64,000 nt of DNA, from assembly GCF_008087625.1 (NCBI RefSeq), contig NZ_CP042997.1, forward strand, positions 4,030,001-4,094,000, in the 5' to 3' direction. The notes beneath the pieces were generated by a model. The model was not told the origin of the DNA and searched no databases. It saw only the letters and a program-made list of their open reading frames with translations. Position 1 is the stretch's first letter; every line of letters starts with the position of its first letter. The stretch is from Aquisphaera giovannonii (GTDB lineage Bacteria; Planctomycetota; Planctomycetia; Isosphaerales; Isosphaeraceae). This document shows positions 18,825 to 46,150 of this stretch, in pieces. Made by a program: the position numbers and the translations under genes.

Positions 18825-18990
18825 GCCAGCGCCCCCTTTCCCTTCCATCCTGCCGAACGCCGGCCCGCCCGTCGACGGTCAGCCGTGTGCCGCGCGTCGG
18901 CCCGTGCTCACGATGCCGTGACCACGACCCGCGCAGCTCGCCTGACCGGGGTCCATCCAGGCGTAGCCAGAGACAAGGCCTCGCGCGTGG

Positions 18991-19195
18991 GCCGGGGCGA
19001 TCCCGCGGCATCGCCTTCGGCTCTGCCGCAGCCACCCGGAGTGTCTCCTGGCCTCGAGATCGTGCTCAGGCCGGGGGTGGCCGTGGTGGAAGCGCAGCGA
19101 CACCACGGTCGGGCGGGCCGCGGCGATGCATGGGGCCCTCCCGCAGGCCGGGGCGATCCCGCGGCATCGCCTTCGGCTCTGCCGCAGCCACCCGG
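18991..19195. repeat. two identical 49-bp direct repeats, family B
   Basis: The 49-base unit starting GCCGGGGCGATCCCGCGGCA occurs at 18991-19039 and again, without a single difference, at 19147-19195. Reverse-complement relatives are at 12664-12706. The unit includes short internal complementarities and lies in the 607-base gap 18825-19431 between divergent genes. The rest of that gap shows no gene; frames through it (for example AAAEPKAMPRDRP) only translate the repeat. Confidence 0.8.
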
Positions 19196-35702: not shown

Positions 35703-38700
35703 ATGAACCCGATCGTATTCGCCATGCGCAGGCCGGTCACGACGATGATGTTCGTGGTCGCGCTCATCAGCAGCGGCTTGCTCGCCTACAGCCGCATGCG
35801 CGTGGATATCTTCCCCGCCTTGAACACGCCGAAGATCTACGTCTTCCTCGACTACGTCGGCATGAGCCCGGATCAGATGGAGGGCTTCATCGTCAACCAG
35901 CTCGAGCTGTTCTTCCAGTACGTGGACGGCGTCCAGGACATCAACACGCGGAACATCCAGCAGGTCTCGCTCTGCGAGCTCTCCTTCTACCCGGGCACGG
36001 ACATGGGGCAGGCGATGGCGCAGGTGGTCGCCATGTCCAGCCGGGCCATGTCGTGGATGCCCAAGGGGACGCTGCCGCCGATGATCATGCGGATGGACGC
36101 CGGCAGCGTCCCCGTGGGCTATCTCGTCTTCGAGAGCGAGAAGACGTCCCTGGGGCTGATGGGGGACCTCGCGCAGAACGTGGTGCGCCCCCTGGTGCAG
36201 AAGTACGTCCCGGGGACGGTGGCGATCTCCCCCTTCGGCCCGAACATGCGGTCGGTGGTCATCAACGTCGACCCGCAGAAGCTCCTGGCCTACAACCTCC
36301 AGCCGCAGCAGCTCGTGGACGCGGTGGCGAAGGGGAACACGGTGGCGCCGGCGGGCAACATCTACATCAAGGACGCGATGCCGATCGTGTCCAACAACGC
36401 GACGGTCAGCGACGTCCAGCGGCTGGGCGACATCCCGCTGCGGATCGGCCAGAACGTCTACCTGCGCGACGTGGCGACCATCGCCGACGACACGGACATC
36501 ACCTACGGCTACGCGCTGGTCAACGGCAAGAAGTCGGTCTACCTGCCGATCATCAAGAAGGACACCGGCTCCACGCTCACGGTCGTCGCCGACGTGCACA
36601 AGGCGCTGCCCGTCTTCCGCGACGCAGTGCCGAAGGACGTCTCGGTCAACTTCGAGTTCGACGAGTCGCCCACGGTGGTGGCGGCGGTCGAGTCGGTGGC
36701 GACGGAGGGCCTGATCGGCGCCGGCCTGACCGGGCTGATGATCCTGCTGTTCCTGGGCGACCTCCGGAGCGTGATCGTCGTCGTGGCGAACATCCCGCTG
36801 GCGCTCCTCGGGTCGCTCTTCGGGCTCTGGGTCACGGGCAACACGATCAACATCATGTCGCTGGGCGGCATGGCCCTGGCCATCGGCATCCTCGTGGACG
36901 AGTCCACGGTGACGATCGAGGCCACGCACGTCCAGATGACGCGGACGGACAACATGGCCTCGGCGGTCCTGCACGGCAACCTGATCACCGCGGTCCCGCG
37001 GCTCCTGGCGCTGCTCTGCATCCTGTCGGTGTTCATACCGGCCTTCATCATGGGCGACCCGCTGCGGTCGCTGTTCATGCCGCTGACCCTCGGGGTGGGA
37101 TTCGCGATGATCGCGTCCTACTTCCTCTCCAGCACCTTCGTGCCGATCATGTGCGTCGCGCTCCTGAAGCACGGCCACCACGGGGGCCACGACGAGGACA
37201 AGGGGCTGTTCAACCGGGTGCTCAAGGTCTACCGCCGCCTCGTCGAGGGCTTCGTCGCCTGGCGATTCACGGTGGTCATGGCGTACCTCGGCGCGTGCGC
37301 CGCGGTGATGGCCGTCCTCGGATTGCAGGTCGGCAACGAGCTCTTCCCGCAGATCGACTCCGGCCAGTTCGTGCTCCGGTTCCGCCCGCCGCCGGGGTCC
37401 AGCTTCGACCTCACGCGGGAGATGGCCGTGCAGTCCCTGAAGGTGATCGAGGAGGAGGCGAAGGCCGAGAACATCGAGATCTCCATGGGCTTCGTGGGCC
37501 AGGTCGCGCCCAACTTCGGCATCGACAACATGGTCCTGTTCATGCGAGGCCCCGACGACGGCCAGCTCCGCGTGGCCCTGAAGGAGGAGAGCGGCATCAA
37601 GCTGGCCGAGTTCCGCGAGCGGCTCCGGCAGGCCCTGCCCGAGCGCGTGGGCGGGTGGCTGGCGAAGCGGCTCAAGGACGGCGGCATGCCCGAAGGCGAG
37701 GCGAAGCGGCAGTCGAAGCTCGCGGTCTTCGGCTTCGAGCCGGGCGACATCGTCACGAACGTGATGAGCTTCGGCTCGCCGATGCCCATCGCCGTCCGCG
37801 TCGTCGGCACCGACCTCAAGGACGTGAGGAAGTTCGCGGAGAAGATCGCCGGCGAGATGCGCGGGATCAAGACGCTGCGGGACGTGCAGTTCCAGCAGCA
37901 GCTCGACTACCCGAGCGTCGAGGTCACCGTCGACCGCGAGAAGGCCGGCCTCAGCGGGGCCAAGATCGAGGACGTGGTCCACGCCCTGGTCATGGCCACC
38001 GCCTCCACCCGGTTCGCCAACCTCAACTACTGGATCGACGCGAAGACCGGCTTCGACTACCTGGTCCAGCTCCAGATCCCGCCCAAGCGGCTGGACAAGC
38101 CCGAGGACGTGGAGACGCTGCCGCTGGAGTCGGTCAACCCGCTGGTCAACCTGATGATCCGCGACGTGGCCACGGTCAGCCGCGGCGTCCGGCCCGGCGA
38201 GATCGACCGCGACATGTCCCAGCGCTACCTCACGCTGGTCGCGAACGTGGAGGGCGAGGACATGGGCCGCGCCGCCCGCCGCGTGAGCGAGGCGATCGCG
38301 AAGGCCGGGGAGCCCCCCCGCGGCGTCCGCGTCGAGCTGATGGGCCAGCTCCCGGCCATGACCGAGATGTTCAAGGCCCTGGGCATCGGGCTGGGGGTCG
38401 CCGTCTTCGTGATCTTCGTCCTGCTCACCGCCTACTTCCAGTCGGCGAGCATGGCCCTGATCTCGATCGGCGCCGTGCCGGGCGTGCTGGCGGGCATCGC
38501 CACCATCCTCTACTTCTGGAACACGTCGCTGAACATCGAGTCGTTCATGGGCTCGATCATGTGCCTCGGCGTCTCGGTGTCCAACTCGGTCATGCTCGTG
38601 ACCTACATGGACGAGTACTGGAAGGGGGGCTCGCCCGGCTACGAGGCGGCCGTGAAGGGCGCCGCCGACCGCCTCCGCCCCATCCTCATGACGGCCTGCG

Positions 38701-39248
38701 CCATGAGCGTGGGCATGGTCCCGATGGCCCTGGCCCTGGAGAAGGGGAGCCAGATGCAGGCGCCGCTCGGCCGGGCGGTCATCGGCGGCCTGGTGATGTC
38801 CACCTTCGCGACCCTGCTGGTCGTGCCGTCCATCTTCGCGCTGGTCATGGGCAAGCGCAAGGCCATCTCGCCCTCGATCTACCCGGACGACCCGGAGAGC
38901 CGGTACTACGACCCCGAGGTGTTCGTGGACGCGGCCCACAAGTCCCACGGCCACGGGGAGCACGGCGAAGGGGAGGGCGAGGGGCATCCCACGGTGCACG
39001 CCGACGTCCCGACCCGCCACCACGACGCGGTGATCCACCACGACGAGGACGCGATCGCGTTCCTGCGGCGGATCCTCGACGAGGCCCGGGCGAGGCGTCA
39101 CGACATGGTCACCCACTACACGGTGGACGACCTCCGCTCGGCCCTCGGGTTCACCCGGTCCGAGCCGTACGTCCCGGATCCCGACACGGGCCGCGTCGAG
39201 GGCGGCCCGGGCTCGCCGAAGCACGACGACCTCCACGGAGGCTCCTGA
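35703..39248 (+). CDS. RND-family efflux pump, inner-membrane component
   Basis: An 1181-residue RND transporter with the usual twelve TM helices and two periplasmic domains. It starts with TM1 FAMRRPVTTMMFVVALISSG. TM4 reads LAIGILVDESTVTIEATH, where the paired Asp of AcrB (DD) is replaced by D-E. TM10 reads CLGVSVSNSVMLVTYMDEY, with no Lys at the relay position. Proton coupling may therefore differ from AcrB. Two His-rich cytosolic parts stand out: ALLKHGHHGGHDEDKG between the halves and an HxH-rich tail from about residue 1080. The start at 35703 follows 185 bases after a small ORF. The adaptor gene overlaps by one base (TGATG), and two TolC-like genes follow. Substrate is unknown; His clusters suggest metals. 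Confidence 0.9.
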   Translation: MNPIVFAMRRPVTTMMFVVALISSGLLAYSRMRVDIFPALNTPKIYVFLDYVGMSPDQMEGFIVNQLELFFQYVDGVQDINTRNIQQVSLCELSFYPGTDMGQAMAQVVAMSSRAMSWMPKGTLPPMIMRMDAGSVPVGYLVFESEKTSLGLMGDLAQNVVRPLVQKYVPGTVAISPFGPNMRSVVINVDPQKLLAYNLQPQQLVDAVAKGNTVAPAGNIYIKDAMPIVSNNATVSDVQRLGDIPLRIGQNVYLRDVATIADDTDITYGYALVNGKKSVYLPIIKKDTGSTLTVVADVHKALPVFRDAVPKDVSVNFEFDESPTVVAAVESVATEGLIGAGLTGLMILLFLGDLRSVIVVVANIPLALLGSLFGLWVTGNTINIMSLGGMALAIGILVDESTVTIEATHVQMTRTDNMASAVLHGNLITAVPRLLALLCILSVFIPAFIMGDPLRSLFMPLTLGVGFAMIASYFLSSTFVPIMCVALLKHGHHGGHDEDKGLFNRVLKVYRRLVEGFVAWRFTVVMAYLGACAAVMAVLGLQVGNELFPQIDSGQFVLRFRPPPGSSFDLTREMAVQSLKVIEEEAKAENIEISMGFVGQVAPNFGIDNMVLFMRGPDDGQLRVALKEESGIKLAEFRERLRQALPERVGGWLAKRLKDGGMPEGEAKRQSKLAVFGFEPGDIVTNVMSFGSPMPIAVRVVGTDLKDVRKFAEKIAGEMRGIKTLRDVQFQQQLDYPSVEVTVDREKAGLSGAKIEDVVHALVMATASTRFANLNYWIDAKTGFDYLVQLQIPPKRLDKPEDVETLPLESVNPLVNLMIRDVATVSRGVRPGEIDRDMSQRYLTLVANVEGEDMGRAARRVSEAIAKAGEPPRGVRVELMGQLPAMTEMFKALGIGLGVAVFVIFVLLTAYFQSASMALISIGAVPGVLAGIATILYFWNTSLNIESFMGSIMCLGVSVSNSVMLVTYMDEYWKGGSPGYEAAVKGAADRLRPILMTACAMSVGMVPMALALEKGSQMQAPLGRAVIGGLVMSTFATLLVVPSIFALVMGKRKAISPSIYPDDPESRYYDPEVFVDAAHKSHGHGEHGEGEGEGHPTVHADVPTRHHDAVIHHDEDAIAFLRRILDEARARRHDMVTHYTVDDLRSALGFTRSEPYVPDPDTGRVEGGPGSPKHDDLHGGS

Positions 39249-41029: not shown

Positions 41030-42718
41030 ATGGACCGAACAGCGAGGACATGGATGTCCGTAGCGGCCTTCGGGCTGCTCGCCTGCGAGACGCCCGGGCC
41101 GGCCGCGGCCCAGGCGCCCACGAGCCCGAGGCCGCCGGCCGCCTCGGCGTCCCCCCCGGCCGCGTCGCCGGGGCCGGCAATCAACCCGCCGGCCGCCGCG
41201 AGCCCGGCCTTCGGCGCGCCGGCGGCCGACCTCCCGGTCCCGCTGCCGGTCGCCGCGCCCGCCGGCAACCCGCTCGCGAGGAACCTGGACCTGAAGGCCG
41301 CGCCCTTCGAGGCGAACGACCGCCGGTTCCCGATCAACCTGGCCGCCGCGCTGCGGCTGTCCGACGCCAGGCCCCTCATCGTCGCCGCCGCCCAGGCCGG
41401 CACCTGGGTCGCCGAGGCCGAACTCCTCAGGGCCAAGCTGCTCTGGGTCCCGACGCTCAACATCGGCTTCAACTACGTCCGACACGACGGCGGCGGCCCC
41501 GACTTCAACAAGGGCATCATGACCGCACCCTCGGTCAACTTCTTCTACGGGGGTGCGGGCATGACCTACACCCTGTTCACGGCCGACGCCGTCTTCCAGC
41601 CCCTCGTCGCCCGCCAGACGCTCAATGCGGCCCACTGGAATATCCAGACCGCGAAGAACGACGCCCTCCTCCAGACCTCCGACGCCTACTTCCGCGTCCA
41701 CCAGCAGCGCGGCATCTACACGGGCACCCTCTACAGCGTCGAACGCGGCCGCGAGCTCGTCCAGCGGGTCTCCGACCTCAGCGTCGAGCTGGTGCCCAAG
41801 GTCGAGGTGGACCGGGCCCGCAACATGCTCGCCGACCTGGAGCAGCAGGCCGTGATGGCCCGCCAGGAGTGGCGCGTCGCAAGCGCCGACCTCACCCAGG
41901 TCCTCCGGCTCGACCCTCGCGCCGTCCTCGAGCCGCTGGAGCACGACCACGCCCAGATCACGATCATCGACCCGGGCCGCACGCTCGACGACCTCATGCC
42001 CATCGCCCTGACCAACCGCCCCGAGTTGGCCGCCCACCAGGCGCTCGTGCAGGCGATGATGAACGAGATCCGGAATCAGAAGTGGCGTCCGCTCATCCCC
42101 AACCTCTGGCTCAACGGCTTCCAGACCCCGTATGAGATGCTCCAGGCGGGGATCTTCGGCCTGGGGCCCAACTCGAGCATGAACCAGTGGAAGGGCCGGT
42201 TCGACCTGAGCCTCCAGCCGCTCTGGCAGCTCGACTCCCTGGGCCTGGGCAACCTGGCGATGATCAAGTCGGCCAGGGGGATGCAATCCCAGGCGATCAT
42301 CCAGTTCCTGATGAACCAGGACGCCGTGGCGGCCGACGTCACCAGGGCCCAGGCCCGGGTGCAATCGGCGGCCGCCCGGGTGCTCCAGGCCGACCGCGCC
42401 CTCCGCACGGCGATCATCACCTTCAACGGCAACTACGAGGGGCTGCGCCAGACGACCAGGCTCGGCAACGTGCTGGTGCTGGTGAACCGCCCCCAGGAGG
42501 CGGTCTTCGCCCTCCAGCTCCTGCAGGTCGCCTTCAACGAGTACTTCACGACGGTGGCCGATTACAACCGCTCCCAGTTCGAGCTCTTCCATGCCCTCGG
42601 GTATCCGGCGCGCGAGATCGCCCAGCTCCGCCCGGCGGGCGACGCGGTCCCCGTCGATATCCAGCGGCCCGGCTACCTGCCTCCGGTCGGCAACGGCCCG
42701 CCCCCCGCGACCCGATGA
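41030..42718 (+). CDS. TolC/OprM-like outer-membrane efflux protein, copy 1
   Basis: A 562-residue outer membrane channel. Signal peptide at 1-29 (WMSVAAFGLLAC, cleavage near AAAQA), then a Pro/Ala-rich linker (about 30-85), then the two OEP domains. Typical features are INLAAALRLSDARPLIVAAA, the coiled QTLNAAHWNIQTAKNDALLQ hairpin and the mirrored second repeat ADVTRAQARVQSAAARVLQA. The ATG at 41030 has AAGGAAGG upstream; the frame's earlier ATG (40967) has none. It ends the pump-adaptor-channel set. A paralogue follows at 43547, with stretches of over 70 bases identical at the DNA level. Confidence 0.9.
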   Translation: MDRTARTWMSVAAFGLLACETPGPAAAQAPTSPRPPAASASPPAASPGPAINPPAAASPAFGAPAADLPVPLPVAAPAGNPLARNLDLKAAPFEANDRRFPINLAAALRLSDARPLIVAAAQAGTWVAEAELLRAKLLWVPTLNIGFNYVRHDGGGPDFNKGIMTAPSVNFFYGGAGMTYTLFTADAVFQPLVARQTLNAAHWNIQTAKNDALLQTSDAYFRVHQQRGIYTGTLYSVERGRELVQRVSDLSVELVPKVEVDRARNMLADLEQQAVMARQEWRVASADLTQVLRLDPRAVLEPLEHDHAQITIIDPGRTLDDLMPIALTNRPELAAHQALVQAMMNEIRNQKWRPLIPNLWLNGFQTPYEMLQAGIFGLGPNSSMNQWKGRFDLSLQPLWQLDSLGLGNLAMIKSARGMQSQAIIQFLMNQDAVAADVTRAQARVQSAAARVLQADRALRTAIITFNGNYEGLRQTTRLGNVLVLVNRPQEAVFALQLLQVAFNEYFTTVADYNRSQFELFHALGYPAREIAQLRPAGDAVPVDIQRPGYLPPVGNGPPPATR

Positions 42719-42791
42719 TGCCGTCCGACGGCGAGCCGCCGCCCGCGGCGGCCGCCCCATCCGCACCACCTATCCAAGGGGAGGAGGCCCC

Positions 42792-43487
42792 GTGTCCGAG
42801 CGCCCGTCCGCAAGGTTCCGCCCGTGCCTCGAGAACCTCGAGGCCAAGCAGCTGCCGAGCACAGTCGCGAGCCTCGGGGCGGCCGCCCGCCGGGTCGCGG
42901 CGGAGACGAAGGTCCAGCCCGAGGCCGTCCAGCCCAAGCCGACCCACGGCTACCTCGTCTTCCGCATCACCAACCCCAGCCGCTACAACAACACGGTCCT
43001 GCCGCCCTTCCAGCAGGTCCTCGTCCAGAGGGACCAGCCGGTCCGCGGCCAGACGTATAACATCCTCTCGGTCGTCGTCCGCAACGGCACGGCGAGGACC
43101 TTCACCGCCTCGGACAACCTCCGGGTGAGGCTCTCCCAGCAGAATTACTCGACGCCCATCCTGACCGACGACCAGCAGTGGCGGCCCGGCCAGTGGATCG
43201 TCTTCTACGTGCTGACGAAGAAGTACTACCCGCTGCCCTCGCAGGTCAAATCCGGGTTCAACTTCAATCTCGGCGGCGCCAGGTCCCTGGCGATCCCGGG
43301 ACCGTCCGGGATCTTCCAGCGGATCACGTACAACCCGGCCACCTTCCCGCGCACCCTGGACGCGATCACGTCCTTCGGCGTCGGGGCCCAGGGAGGGGCC
43401 GGCTACAAGTACGGCCTGCCCGTCACGAATGTCGCGGAGTTCGTCTCCGCGAAGACGAACCGGAACGACTTCGGCGGCTACTTCTGA
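42792..43487 (+). CDS. protein with LEPR-XLL-like N-terminal anchor motif
   Basis: A 231-residue protein located between the two TolC-like genes. The N-terminus (SERPSARFRPCLENLEAKQL) resembles the LEPR-XLL or LExLExRxLPS signature that opens many planctomycete surface or secreted proteins. A beta-rich domain follows (TNPSRYNNTVLPPFQQV, then IVFYVLTKKYYPLPSQVKSG) and the tail has GGAGYKYGLPVTN. The start is GTG at 42792, preceded by GGGGAGGAGG, because the frame further upstream lies in the previous gene. Its gene position hints at a role at the cell surface or with the efflux channels, but no activity is recognised. Confidence 0.6.
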   Translation: MSERPSARFRPCLENLEAKQLPSTVASLGAAARRVAAETKVQPEAVQPKPTHGYLVFRITNPSRYNNTVLPPFQQVLVQRDQPVRGQTYNILSVVVRNGTARTFTASDNLRVRLSQQNYSTPILTDDQQWRPGQWIVFYVLTKKYYPLPSQVKSGFNFNLGGARSLAIPGPSGIFQRITYNPATFPRTLDAITSFGVGAQGGAGYKYGLPVTNVAEFVSAKTNRNDFGGYF

Positions 43488-43546
43488 ACGGCCCCGGCGG
43501 ACCCGACCGCGACGACAGACAGAGGAGAGGGAGGGCGAGGATCGCC

Positions 43547-45448
43547 ATGCGTCACAGGTGCGCGAGGATATTGTTCGCGGGGGCGGCGCTGCTCACGTGG
43601 CCCGGCACGTCGGCGTCCGCGGCCGCGGCGGGGATGATGGACGCCGCGGACGGGGCATCGCCCCCGGCATCCGCGGGCGTCGACGGCGCCCGCATCGACG
43701 ACATGCCGTCCACGGTCTCGCCCGCGATCGCGCGGTTCCTGCGGGAGAACGGCGACAGGCCCATCCCCGCGGTGCCCGCGGCGCGGCCGCCCTCGGCCGT
43801 CGCCCCCGGCTCGGGCCGGCCGCCGATCGGCCCGTCGCCCGGTCCGCCGTCGCCCCTCGCCGTTCGGCCGGACATACCCCAGCCGCCCTCGGGCGGCGGA
43901 GCCTCGCCGGGCCTCCCCCCCCAACCCTCCCCGCCGCAGGACAACAGGCCGTTCGCGAATTCCCCGTTCGTCACGCCCGCCCCCCCCGGCGGCGACGCGC
44001 TTGCCGCGGCGGGCCTCGAGCTCAAGGCCGCCCCCTTCGAACCGACCGACCTGAGGTTCCCGATCAACCTGGCCGCCGCGCTGCGGCTGTCCGACGCCAG
44101 GCCCCTCATCGTCGCCGCCGCCCAGGCCGGCGTCTGGACCGCCGAGGCCGACCTGATGCGGGCCAAGGTCCTCTGGGTGCCCAGCGCCCTCTTCGGCGTC
44201 GACTACACCCGGCATGACGGCGGGGGCCCCGACTTCAACAAGGGCGTGATGACCGCCGCGTCCGTCAACTACTTCATGGGCGGCGGCGGCCTGGGCCTCT
44301 ACGTGAACGTCACGGATGCCGTCTTCGAACCGCTCGTCGCCCGGCAGGCCCTCAACGCCGCGCACTGGGACGTGCAGGCTTCGAAGAACGACGCCCTCTT
44401 CCAGGCCGCCGACGCCTACTTCCGCGTCCACCAGTACCGGGGCATGTACGCCGGGGCCCTGTACACCGTCGAGTACGGCCGGCTCCTCATCGACAAGATC
44501 CAGGCGCTCAGCCGCGAGCTCGTGCCCCTGGACGAGGTCGACCGGGCCCGCAACATGGTGGCCGACCTGGAGCAGCGAGCCGTCCTCGCCCGCCAGGAGT
44601 GGCGCGTCGCCAGCGCCGACCTGACCCAGGTCCTCCGGCTCGACCCCCGCGCGGTCCTCGAGCCCCAGGAGCACGACCACGCCCAGATCACGATCATCGA
44701 CCCGGGCCGCACGCTCGACGACCTCATGCCCATCGCCCTGGCCAACCGCCCCGAACTGTCGTCGAGGCGGGCGAGCCTGCTGGCGGCGGAGGCCCGCATC
44801 CGCCGCGAGAAGATGCGGCCCCTCCTCCCCCTGCTCACGGTCAACGGCTTCCAGCACCCGGGCTTCACCATGCAGGGCGGCGTCTTCGGCCTGGGGCCCA
44901 ATAGCAGCCTCAACCAGTTCGTCGGCCGCAACGACGTCACGCTCGGCGTCTTCTGGCAGCTCGAGGGCCTGGGGATCGGGAACCTGGCGCGGATCAAGCA
45001 GCAGCGCGGACTGGAGTCGGACTCGATCATCCGGCTCCGTCGCCAGCAGGACCTGGTGGCCGCGGACGTCACCCGCGCCCTCGCCCGGGTGCAGTCCGCG
45101 GCGGCCCGCGTGCTGCAAGCGGACCGCGCCCTCCGTACCGGCATCGTCACCTTCATCGGTCACCTGGAAGGCCTGGGGCAGACCCGCCGGCTCGAGAACG
45201 TCCTGATCTTGACGTTCCGGCCCCAGGAGGCGGTCTACTCCCTCGACATGCTCAACGTGGCGTTCAACGAATACTTCACGACCGTGGCCGAGTACAACCG
45301 GGCGCAGTTCGACCTCTTCCACGCGCTCGGATACCCGGCCCGCGAGCTCAGCCAACTGCGCCCCGTCGGCACCCCGCTGCCGGTGGATACCGAGCGGCCG
45401 GTCTACCTGCCCGGCGTCGGCGTCGGCCCCCCGCCGGCGACCCGCTGA
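43547..45448 (+). CDS. TolC/OprM-like outer-membrane efflux protein, copy 2
   Basis: A 633-residue paralogue of the channel at 41030. Signal peptide at 1-27 (RILFAGAALLTWPGT), then a longer Pro/Ala-rich linker (about 40-160), then the same OEP repeats: INLAAALRLSDARPLIVAAA and HDHAQITIIDPGRTLDDLMP are shared word for word. Differences concentrate in the outer hairpins and loops (for example GGGGLGLYVNVTDAVFEPLV). Two channel genes behind one pump suggests alternative exit ducts or a duplication still being sorted. A ribosome-binding GAGGGAGGGCGAGG precedes the ATG. Confidence 0.9.
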   Translation: MRHRCARILFAGAALLTWPGTSASAAAAGMMDAADGASPPASAGVDGARIDDMPSTVSPAIARFLRENGDRPIPAVPAARPPSAVAPGSGRPPIGPSPGPPSPLAVRPDIPQPPSGGGASPGLPPQPSPPQDNRPFANSPFVTPAPPGGDALAAAGLELKAAPFEPTDLRFPINLAAALRLSDARPLIVAAAQAGVWTAEADLMRAKVLWVPSALFGVDYTRHDGGGPDFNKGVMTAASVNYFMGGGGLGLYVNVTDAVFEPLVARQALNAAHWDVQASKNDALFQAADAYFRVHQYRGMYAGALYTVEYGRLLIDKIQALSRELVPLDEVDRARNMVADLEQRAVLARQEWRVASADLTQVLRLDPRAVLEPQEHDHAQITIIDPGRTLDDLMPIALANRPELSSRRASLLAAEARIRREKMRPLLPLLTVNGFQHPGFTMQGGVFGLGPNSSLNQFVGRNDVTLGVFWQLEGLGIGNLARIKQQRGLESDSIIRLRRQQDLVAADVTRALARVQSAAARVLQADRALRTGIVTFIGHLEGLGQTRRLENVLILTFRPQEAVYSLDMLNVAFNEYFTTVAEYNRAQFDLFHALGYPARELSQLRPVGTPLPVDTERPVYLPGVGVGPPPATR

Positions 45449-45490: not shown

Positions 45491-46150
45491 ATGCATCAGA
45501 AAGCGACGACCGGGGCCGGAACCGGCCTCGTGGCGCTGGCCTTCGCGATCGCACTCTCGGGCGCGACCCCCCAAGCCCACGGCGACGACGGCAGGCCGTG
45601 TGCGGAGGGCTGCAAGCTCCAGCACGCCCACCATTACCGACAGGCCATGCCCGCGGCCGGCACGCTCGGATACGGGCCCCCGGGCATCCATCCGGGCTTC
45701 CAGGGCTTCGGGCTCGGCTGGCACCGCGGATACGGCTACGGCGGCAGGGCGCTGGGCCCCGGTGCCGAGGGGGGCTACCCGTTCTACGGCGGCCCCGGCT
45801 ATCCCCACCCCTGGCCGACGCTCCGCCGGATCGGCGGGATCAACCCGTTCCCCCACTTCATCGGCCCCGGCGGCCCTACCCCGACCTGCCCCAATTTCTA
45901 CGGCGAGCCCGGTCAGCTCAGGCCGGATAGCCCCGTGGTGCAGATCGTCGGCGCGCCTCCGGAGATGGGCTACGGCCAGTTTCACGGCATGCTCCCGTAT
46001 CCCGATTCCACGTTCGCCCCGTTCACGGCCGCCGCGAGCGGCGAGGCCACCGGGGTCGGCGCGACGCCCCCCGCGCCCGAGGCCAACTCGCCCAACGGGC
46101 TCCCCACGGCCCCCTCGCCCGCGAACACCCCGCCCCCGTCGAGGCCCTGA
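45491..46150 (+). CDS. exported Gly/Pro/Tyr-rich protein
   Basis: A 219-residue protein with a Sec signal peptide (GTGLVALAFAIALSGATP, cleavage near AHG) and a CAEGCKLQHAHHYRQ segment just after it. The rest is Gly-, Pro- and Tyr-rich with His and no recognisable domain, ending with a Pro/Ser/Thr tail. Similar low-complexity exported proteins are common in planctomycetes and are thought to be cell-surface material. It follows the second TolC-like gene by 42 bp. Confidence 0.65.
   Translation: MHQKATTGAGTGLVALAFAIALSGATPQAHGDDGRPCAEGCKLQHAHHYRQAMPAAGTLGYGPPGIHPGFQGFGLGWHRGYGYGGRALGPGAEGGYPFYGGPGYPHPWPTLRRIGGINPFPHFIGPGGPTPTCPNFYGEPGQLRPDSPVVQIVGAPPEMGYGQFHGMLPYPDSTFAPFTAAASGEATGVGATPPAPEANSPNGLPTAPSPANTPPPSRP

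What the first reader, a model, noticed from the sequence alone, without database searches (positions are those of the whole stretch)
41030..45448. Paralogous efflux channels with patches of identical DNA
The two TolC-like genes share stretches of about 70 bases with no differences, including third positions (for example 41340-41400 against 44061-44130, and 41940-42010 against 44670-44740), while the rest is diverged. Patchy identity is a sign of gene conversion. A surface-type protein gene lies between them.
Basis: seen in the sequence. Interest (0 to 1): 0.5.

Follow-up and report, generated by a model that had tools for sequence, protein, structure and literature searches.

The report
Gene conversion between tandem efflux-channel genes
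Two neighbouring genes for outer-membrane efflux channels have repeatedly copied short stretches of DNA into each other while other stretches stay distinct, a known kind of gene-family evolution seen here in a gene pair shared by related planctomycete-type bacteria.

Summary
The TolC-family genes OEP1 (41030-42718) and OEP2 (43547-45448) align without gaps over 480 codons at an offset of 2730. Exact runs of 77 nt (41325-41401/44055-44131) and 73 nt (41938-42010/44668-44740) stand in 76% overall identity. Shuffling codon pairs within amino-acid type never reached the longer one: 0 of 2000. Synonymous divergence is 0.05-0.07 in windows centred on the patches and mostly 0.24-0.56 elsewhere.

Relatives decide it. 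OEP1 and OEP2 each group with their own orthologues from another genus, so the duplication is older than that split. Yet in each genome of this clade the two copies share identical patches, at partly different places and with different bases, plus private states such as an AGG codon. Column blocks 0-59, 200-256 and 431-489 group by genome; 60-109, 257-359 and 360-430 by paralogue. Recurrent ectopic gene conversion beside protected paralogue-specific segments fits; constraint and recent duplication do not. A second gene pair repeats the block layout only in part.

The phenomenon is known (mtrA, tuf, opsins). A mixed two-protein channel is an untested bolder reading.

The parts
35703..39248 (+). 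RND-type inner-membrane pump gene, first gene of the cluster (start codon placed by eye)
   Evidence: PF00873 ACR_tran, 562.5 bits against cut-off 28, searched from 35712; a homologue is found in 11 of 18 relative stretches, several of which are cut by contig ends
39248..40864 (+). periplasmic adaptor (membrane fusion protein) gene; an inner ATG at about 39347 is an alternative start
   Evidence: TIGR01730 RND_mfp 150.4 bits against cut-off 94.9; PF16576 86.6 bits against 30
41030..42718 (+). OEP1, TolC-family outer membrane efflux protein, 562 aa
   Evidence: PF02321 OEP, 54.2 bits against cut-off 22
42792..43487 (+). gene X, 231 aa, unknown, between the two OEP genes
   Evidence: no Pfam or NCBIfam match; homologues of 41-71% identity
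43547..45448 (+). OEP2, TolC-family outer membrane efflux protein, 633 aa
   Evidence: PF02321 OEP, 43.7 bits against cut-off 22, searched from 43550
45491..46150 (+). gene Y, 219 aa, unknown, downstream of OEP2
   Evidence: homologues downstream of OEP2 in G040, G041, G048, G049, G050 and G052; no family match
41325..41401 (+). converted patch 1 in OEP1 (77 nt identical)
44055..44131 (+). converted patch 1 in OEP2
41938..42010 (+). converted patch 2 in OEP1 (73 nt identical)
44668..44740 (+). converted patch 2 in OEP2
42023..42538 (+). mainly paralogue-specific stretch of OEP1 (alignment columns 257-430), with 21 of the 30 fixed clade differences

Best explanation
OEP1 and OEP2 are an old tandem duplicate, older than the split between the genera compared, in an RND efflux cluster (pump, adaptor, OEP1, X, OEP2, Y). 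Short stretches have been copied between them repeatedly by homologous recombination without loss of the gene between them. At least two tracts, now seen as 77 and 73 identical nt, were transferred in this lineage after it split from its sampled relatives. In this clade conversion homogenises the start of the first TolC repeat, the linker and start of the second repeat, and the tail. Clusters of paralogue-specific residues (predicted first barrel strands, parts of the second repeat) stay distinct, most simply because conversions there are selected against or fail for lack of homology. Shown: old duplication, genome-private patches, conflicting segment trees. Inferred: RecA-type recombination, non-reciprocity, and selection as the reason for the protected blocks.
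For: Two exact runs; longest run and summed runs each reached in 0 of 2000 shuffles. pS 0.05-0.07 in the patches, mostly 0.24-0.56 outside. Orthologue clades: OEP1 with copy 1 of G049, G050, G052 (100/99); OEP2 with copy 2 of the same (100/99), and of G041 too (98/99). Each of these five genomes has its own shared run: 77 and 73 nt here, 117 in G050, 71 in G049, 69 in G052, 63 in G041. Shared-private nucleotide states within a genome: 12 here, 9 (G049), 19 (G050), 9 (G052), 30 (G041), against 1-8 in 20 cross-genome paralogue controls and 1-12 in 20 orthologue controls. AU tests: blocks 0-59, 200-256 and 431-489 reject the paralogue tree (p 0.0026, 0.0046, 0.015); blocks 60-109, 257-359 and 360-430 reject the by-genome tree (p 4e-11, 3e-9, 8e-5). 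Separate pair B (G000B/G002): 98 orthologue, 40 paralogue and 7 cross site patterns; columns 257-359 are 38:4 against 60:36 elsewhere, Fisher p 0.0009. Clustering of the patterns along the gene: 0 of 5000 column shuffles in both sets. 14 tandem OEP pairs of lower identity (36-66% aa) have no run above 22 nt. OEP genes 840 kb apart in this genome share no significant run, 4 of 4 comparisons.
Against: Shared codon preference within a genome also makes two copies alike at synonymous sites, so the pattern counts are partly inflated; the shuffles are not affected by this. The 9 shared-private states of G049 and of G052 lie inside the range of the orthologue controls. Six of 16 orthologue control pairs also had an unusually long run (fewer than 100 of 2000 shuffles), none with a gene of the window; five of the six lie in columns 66-105, so one block is alike between genomes for another reason. 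Eight of 19 tandem pairs show no significant patch, among them pair B of this genome and pairs as similar as 76-85% aa (G016, G041B). The AU blocks were chosen after seeing the profile, with 5000 resamplings, which the program calls too few. Patch 2 alone does not reject the paralogue tree at 5% (AU 0.067). Block 110-199 is undecided. Pair B repeats the layout only in part: 257-359 agrees strongly and 200-256 leans the same way (2 orthologue: 6 paralogue, not significant), but 0-59 and 431-489 favour the orthologue tree there (10:4 and 8:4). The finer A and B profiles correlate only weakly (Spearman 0.34, p 0.09). Direction of transfer could not be assigned.
Confidence: 0.93

Rival explanations
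1. Selection at the DNA level (codon choice, mRNA structure or a binding site) holds the patches identical without any exchange.
For: Columns 66-105 show runs of up to 89 nt shared between different genomes (7 of 672 between-genome comparisons reach 60 nt), so some block-wise DNA conservation exists in this gene.
Against: The window's two patches are not in that block. In the patch columns, orthologues in other genomes use other synonymous codons while the two copies inside a genome tend to agree (27 of 38 genes shown). Synonymous identity in columns 20-39 is 0.92 within the five clade-A genomes and 0.66 in 20 cross-genome paralogue pairs. Patches lie at partly different places in different genomes and, where places overlap (for example columns 16-41 here and 6-44 in G050), carry different bases.
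Confidence: 0.03
2. A recent tandem duplication whose copies then diverged quickly except in the patches.
For: The pair is tandem and ungapped over 480 codons.
Against: OEP1 and OEP2 fall in separate orthologue clades with genes of another genus, and G041, G049, G050 and G052 have pump, adaptor, OEP1, X, OEP2 and Y in the same order. With the two patches taken out, the by-genome tree is rejected (AU 1e-5).
Confidence: 0.02
3. Assembly error: reads of two similar genes were merged in the patches.
For: Many of the relatives are fragmented assemblies.
Against: The window's genome is 10.5 Mb in 3 contigs. Runs of 86, 71 and 112 nt also occur in G048 (3 contigs), G049 (9) and G057 (6). The copies are only about 76% identical overall, and runs of about 75 nt are shorter than a usual read (general knowledge).
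Confidence: 0.02

Closest known systems
mtrA-1/mtrA-2 of methanogens (PMC4632066; abstract and section 12 read)
   Same: Old duplicate inside one operon; one part homogenised by gene conversion over long times in separate lineages, another part kept distinct.
   Different: There the converted domain is 92.4-99.7% identical within species and the distinct part is a different transmembrane domain; here short identical runs of about 60-120 nt alternate with distinct sites inside one homologous protein.
tuf gene pair of Salmonella (PMC5485169; abstract and passages read)
   Same: Bacterial gene conversion between two copies of a protein gene; mismatch repair shortens the tracts.
   Different: tuf copies are near-identical and far apart (recalled); here neighbouring copies differ at about a quarter of sites.
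Red/green opsin pattern and the model of divergence peaks under gene conversion (PMC3924837; passages read; the original Teshima and Innan 2008 not read)
   Same: Low divergence maintained by conversion, with peaks of divergence where difference is favoured.
   Different: Eukaryotic case with known functional sites; here such sites are only inferred.
TolC / OEP family (PF02321)
   Same: Pfam match above cut-off; beside an RND pump and an adaptor gene.
   Different: Two channel genes in one cluster; function and assembly not tested.

Membership tests
Ectopic gene conversion (concerted evolution of paralogues) | Stretch of identity between paralogues longer than chance allows given overall divergence | tested here: met
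   0 of 2000 shuffles
Ectopic gene conversion (concerted evolution of paralogues) | Paralogues of one genome more alike in the tract than orthologues, although the duplication is older | tested here: met
   patch 2 on its own only at AU 0.067
Ectopic gene conversion (concerted evolution of paralogues) | Non-reciprocal transfer | not testable with these tools
   one genome per species is held; donor and recipient could not be told apart
OEP/TolC family (PF02321) | Profile match above the curated cut-off | tested here: met
   54.2 and 43.7 bits against 22
OEP/TolC family (PF02321) | TolC fold as a trimeric alpha/beta barrel | tested here: inconclusive
   model of OEP1 with mean pLDDT 46 and pTM 0.30; its secondary structure fits the recalled TolC layout in the first half, strands of the second half are missing
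Divergence peaks at selected sites under gene conversion | Conversion-poor segments hold fixed paralogue differences in several lineages | tested here: met
   30 fixed differences in five genomes, none in columns 0-59 or 110-260; three blocks reject the by-genome tree; pair B agrees clearly only for 257-359
Divergence peaks at selected sites under gene conversion | Functional effect of those sites | not testable with these tools
   needs experiment

The most novel reading that the evidence does not exclude
OEP1 and OEP2 are obligate partners that build one mixed TolC-type channel, or two channels sharing one adaptor and pump. Conversion keeps the shared surfaces matched while selection protects partner-specific residues in the barrel and the second-repeat tip. 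All 16 genomes with the family at E <= 1e-150 carry it as 2 or 4 tandem copies, none as a single copy, which fits but does not show this.
Probability: 0.2. Interest if true: 0.6.

Novelty: new member of a known kind. Interest (0 to 1): 0.42.

Why it matters
It gives a bacterial example, in a clade of five genomes from three genera and in part in a second gene pair, of gene conversion and paralogue specialisation acting on alternate blocks of one gene. The protected clusters point to candidate sites that make the two channel proteins differ. It also warns that whole-gene trees of such pairs average over conflicting histories. If the pair forms a mixed channel it would bear on how tripartite pumps assemble.

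Tried and rejected
Constraint, recent duplication and assembly error were considered and set aside (see rivals). The structure model was too poor for a fold search, so patches are placed only on predicted secondary structure. A PDB sequence search gave three chance-level matches, best E 0.26. Direction of transfer: judged by reading only, no formal test; no diagnostic site inside the patches was seen. The scan of genome contigs found one named relative. A search for long repeats in the whole window found no further paralogous gene pair. Neighbours of pair B: none of four open frames tried had a Pfam match, and the window's pump and adaptor had no tblastn match in that 12-kb stretch, so its partner pump is unknown. 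Literature: no paper on gene conversion in TolC-type genes was seen among the 15 listed of 18 papers or the 2. Searches listed the precedents; one search gave none of use. This is no proof of absence.

Rows dropped or chosen: the broken or incomplete copies on G016 contig 602 (L044) were but left out from then on by a score threshold, and fall below the cut-off. One gene of G041 that was fetched twice was counted once. The 14 pairs were picked by me as adjacent hits, not as a census; 2 of the 14 had their longest run (18 and 16 nt) reached in fewer than 25 of 500 shuffles. One search covered 40 genomes; the 45 family genomes that are held, the window's own included (300 asked for). One search, with 20 genes, was superseded with 38; there no between-genome run exceeded 51 nt in 168 comparisons, but the larger set has 7 of 672 at 60 nt or more.
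Full report
WHAT IS THERE. The region holds a gene cluster on the + strand: an RND-type pump (PF00873), a periplasmic adaptor (TIGR01730 above its cut-off), OEP1 (41030-42718), gene X (42792-43487), OEP2 (43547-45448) and gene Y (45491-46150). Both OEP genes match PF02321, outer membrane efflux protein, above cut-off. Their last 480 codons align without a gap at an offset of 2730. The proline-rich N-terminal parts were left out of the analysis. Block positions below are columns (0-based) of a 490-column codon alignment of 38 genes, in which the window's genes have 10 gap columns.

THE PATCHES. Two exact runs of 77 and 73 nt stand out; the next is 26 nt. Shuffling codon pairs among positions with the same amino-acid pair keeps codon usage, protein conservation and the total of synonymous differences. 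It gave a mean longest run of 34.8 and a maximum of 74 nt; 0 of 2000 shuffles reached 77, and 0 of 2000 reached the summed length of runs of 40 nt or more. Synonymous divergence is 0.07 and 0.05 in the windows centred on the patches, 0.18 and 0.19 in two further windows overlapping patch 2, and 0.24-0.56 in the others.

RELATIVES. The genome has a second tandem pair, B, 840 kb away. Of 45 family genomes held, the window's own included, 16 have this subfamily at E <= 1e-150, each with 2 or 4 copies. After dropping fragments, 19 tandem pairs from 16 genomes (38 genes) were aligned. A protein tree puts OEP1 with copy 1 of G049, G050 and G052 (100/99) and OEP2 with copy 2 of the same genomes (100/99). 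G041 joins the copy-2 clade at 98/99; its copy 1 lies beside the copy-1 clade in a weakly supported fork (92/90). G049, G050 and G052 belong to another genus than the window's genome, G041 to a third. The duplication is therefore older than at least the first of these splits.

PATCHES ARE PRIVATE TO EACH GENOME. The longest runs in the five clade-A pairs lie in columns 16-41 and 228-252 here, 6-44 in G050 (117 nt, although the rest of that pair is far diverged at synonymous sites), 359-382 in G049, 65-89 in G052 and 214-234 in G041. Some places overlap, but the bases differ from genome to genome. Of the 19 tandem pairs 11 have a run of at least 60 nt; of 672 between-genome comparisons 7 do, all in columns 66-105. 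By shuffling, 11 of 19 tandem pairs have a longest run reached in fewer than 100 of 2000 shuffles; 9 of 19 have at most 5 of 2000 on at least one of the two measures; 8 of 19 show nothing on the longest run. Among 16 orthologue controls 6 had fewer than 100 of 2000, none with a gene of the window. The two copies here share AGG for an arginine at column 31, a state absent from all copies of other genomes in the alignment. They also share an isoleucine at column 237 where the other rows shown have leucine or valine (27 of 38 genes shown).

BLOCKS. Trees of segments for the ten clade-A genes conflict. Columns 0-59, 200-256 and 431-489 fit grouping by genome and reject grouping by paralogue (AU p 0.0026, 0.0046, 0.015). 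Columns 60-109, 257-359 and 360-430 do the reverse (4e-11, 3e-9, 8e-5), and 110-199 is undecided (5000 resamplings, which the program calls too few; blocks chosen after seeing the profile). Patch 1 alone rejects the paralogue tree (6e-5); patch 2 alone does not quite (0.067). Fixed amino-acid differences between the OEP1 and OEP2 clades number 30, at columns 60-61, 89-109, 261-295, 323-355 and 387-426, and none lies in 0-59 or 110-260. Clustering of site patterns along the gene exceeds all 5000 column shuffles.

PAIR B AS A CHECK. The B pair, with clear orthologues in G002, gives 98 orthologue, 40 paralogue and 7 cross patterns, so exchange is seen there too. Columns 257-359 are almost purely orthologue-like (38:4 against 60:36 elsewhere, p 0.0009), as in clade A. 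Columns 200-256 lean to grouping by genome (2:6, not significant). But 0-59 (10:4) and 431-489 (8:4) favour the orthologue tree in B, unlike clade A, and the finer profiles correlate only weakly (0.34, p 0.09). The protected core in 257-359 is thus shared by both sets; the rest of the layout is not.

CAUTION. Synonymous patterns in clade A count 292 paralogue, 72 orthologue and 69 cross. Shared codon preference within a genome inflates the first number; the contrast between blocks (paralogue to cross 67:5 in 0-59, 62:5 in 200-256, 32:20 in 257-359) is what speaks for conversion.

CONDITIONS. Tandem OEP pairs with 36-66% amino-acid identity show no run above 22 nt (14 pairs). OEP genes of pairs A and B, 840 kb apart in this genome, share no significant run (4 of 4 comparisons). 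In G006, where two pairs sit side by side in opposite orientation, the four comparisons have runs of 57, 46, 46 and 28 nt, reached in 7, 30, 97 and 281 of 1000 shuffles; in G041, with two pairs some 7 kb apart, none of four is significant. Similarity and closeness may both help, but they are not enough: tandem pairs such as G016 (76% aa) and G041B (85% aa) show no patch.

HOW IT LIKELY WORKS. Homologous recombination, presumably RecA-dependent as in other bacteria (general knowledge), copies short tracts between the neighbours. A simple crossover between direct repeats would delete X, so surviving events are those without one; that is inference. Segments where the two proteins need not differ are homogenised. 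Clusters of differences are kept, either by selection against conversion, as in the opsin example described in PMC3924837 (passages read), or because homology there is too low. On the predicted secondary structure (poor model) patch 1 covers the first short helix and the start of the second, patch 2 the linker and the matching helix of the second repeat. The protected sites include the predicted first strands and, by analogy with OEP proteins (recalled), the region of the second periplasmic tip.

NOVELTY. Gene conversion between paralogues in prokaryotes is known: mtrA (PMC4632066, abstract and section 12) and tuf (PMC5485169, abstract and passages). A case in TolC-type channel genes was not seen in the listings. 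This is a new member of a known kind.

Noticed in passing
window 41471-41551 (alignment columns about 65-92 of OEP1) and homologues: A stretch coding for RHDGGGPDFNKG...SVNFFYGG is nearly identical in DNA between different genera (7 of 672 between-genome pairs share 60 nt or more, up to 89). Preferred codons of a conserved motif, selection on the DNA or exchange between species are all possible.
   Followed up: partly
window 42792-43487: Gene X has no family match; its start (RPCLENLEAKQLPS) recalls the planctomycete LEPR-XLL-like N-terminal motif (recalled, not tested). It lies between the OEP genes in 13 of 19 pairs.
   Followed up: partly
L084-L097: Tandem OEP pairs of lower identity (13 of 14 at 36-45% aa) occur in many of these genomes; 14 such loci, picked as adjacent hits, were read. 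Paired channel genes may be usual in this family.
   Followed up: partly
L044 (G016 contig 602): A further OEP pair with X and Y whose OEP reading frames are broken into pieces; decay or draft-assembly errors.
   Followed up: no
window 41030-41119 and 43547-43650: OEP1 begins with a lipobox-like LLAC and OEP2 with a plain signal-like sequence, seen by eye; the two proteins may be anchored differently.
   Followed up: no
window 18977-19039 and 19133-19195: A 63-nt direct repeat, 90% identical, start-to-start spacing 156 nt.
   Followed up: no
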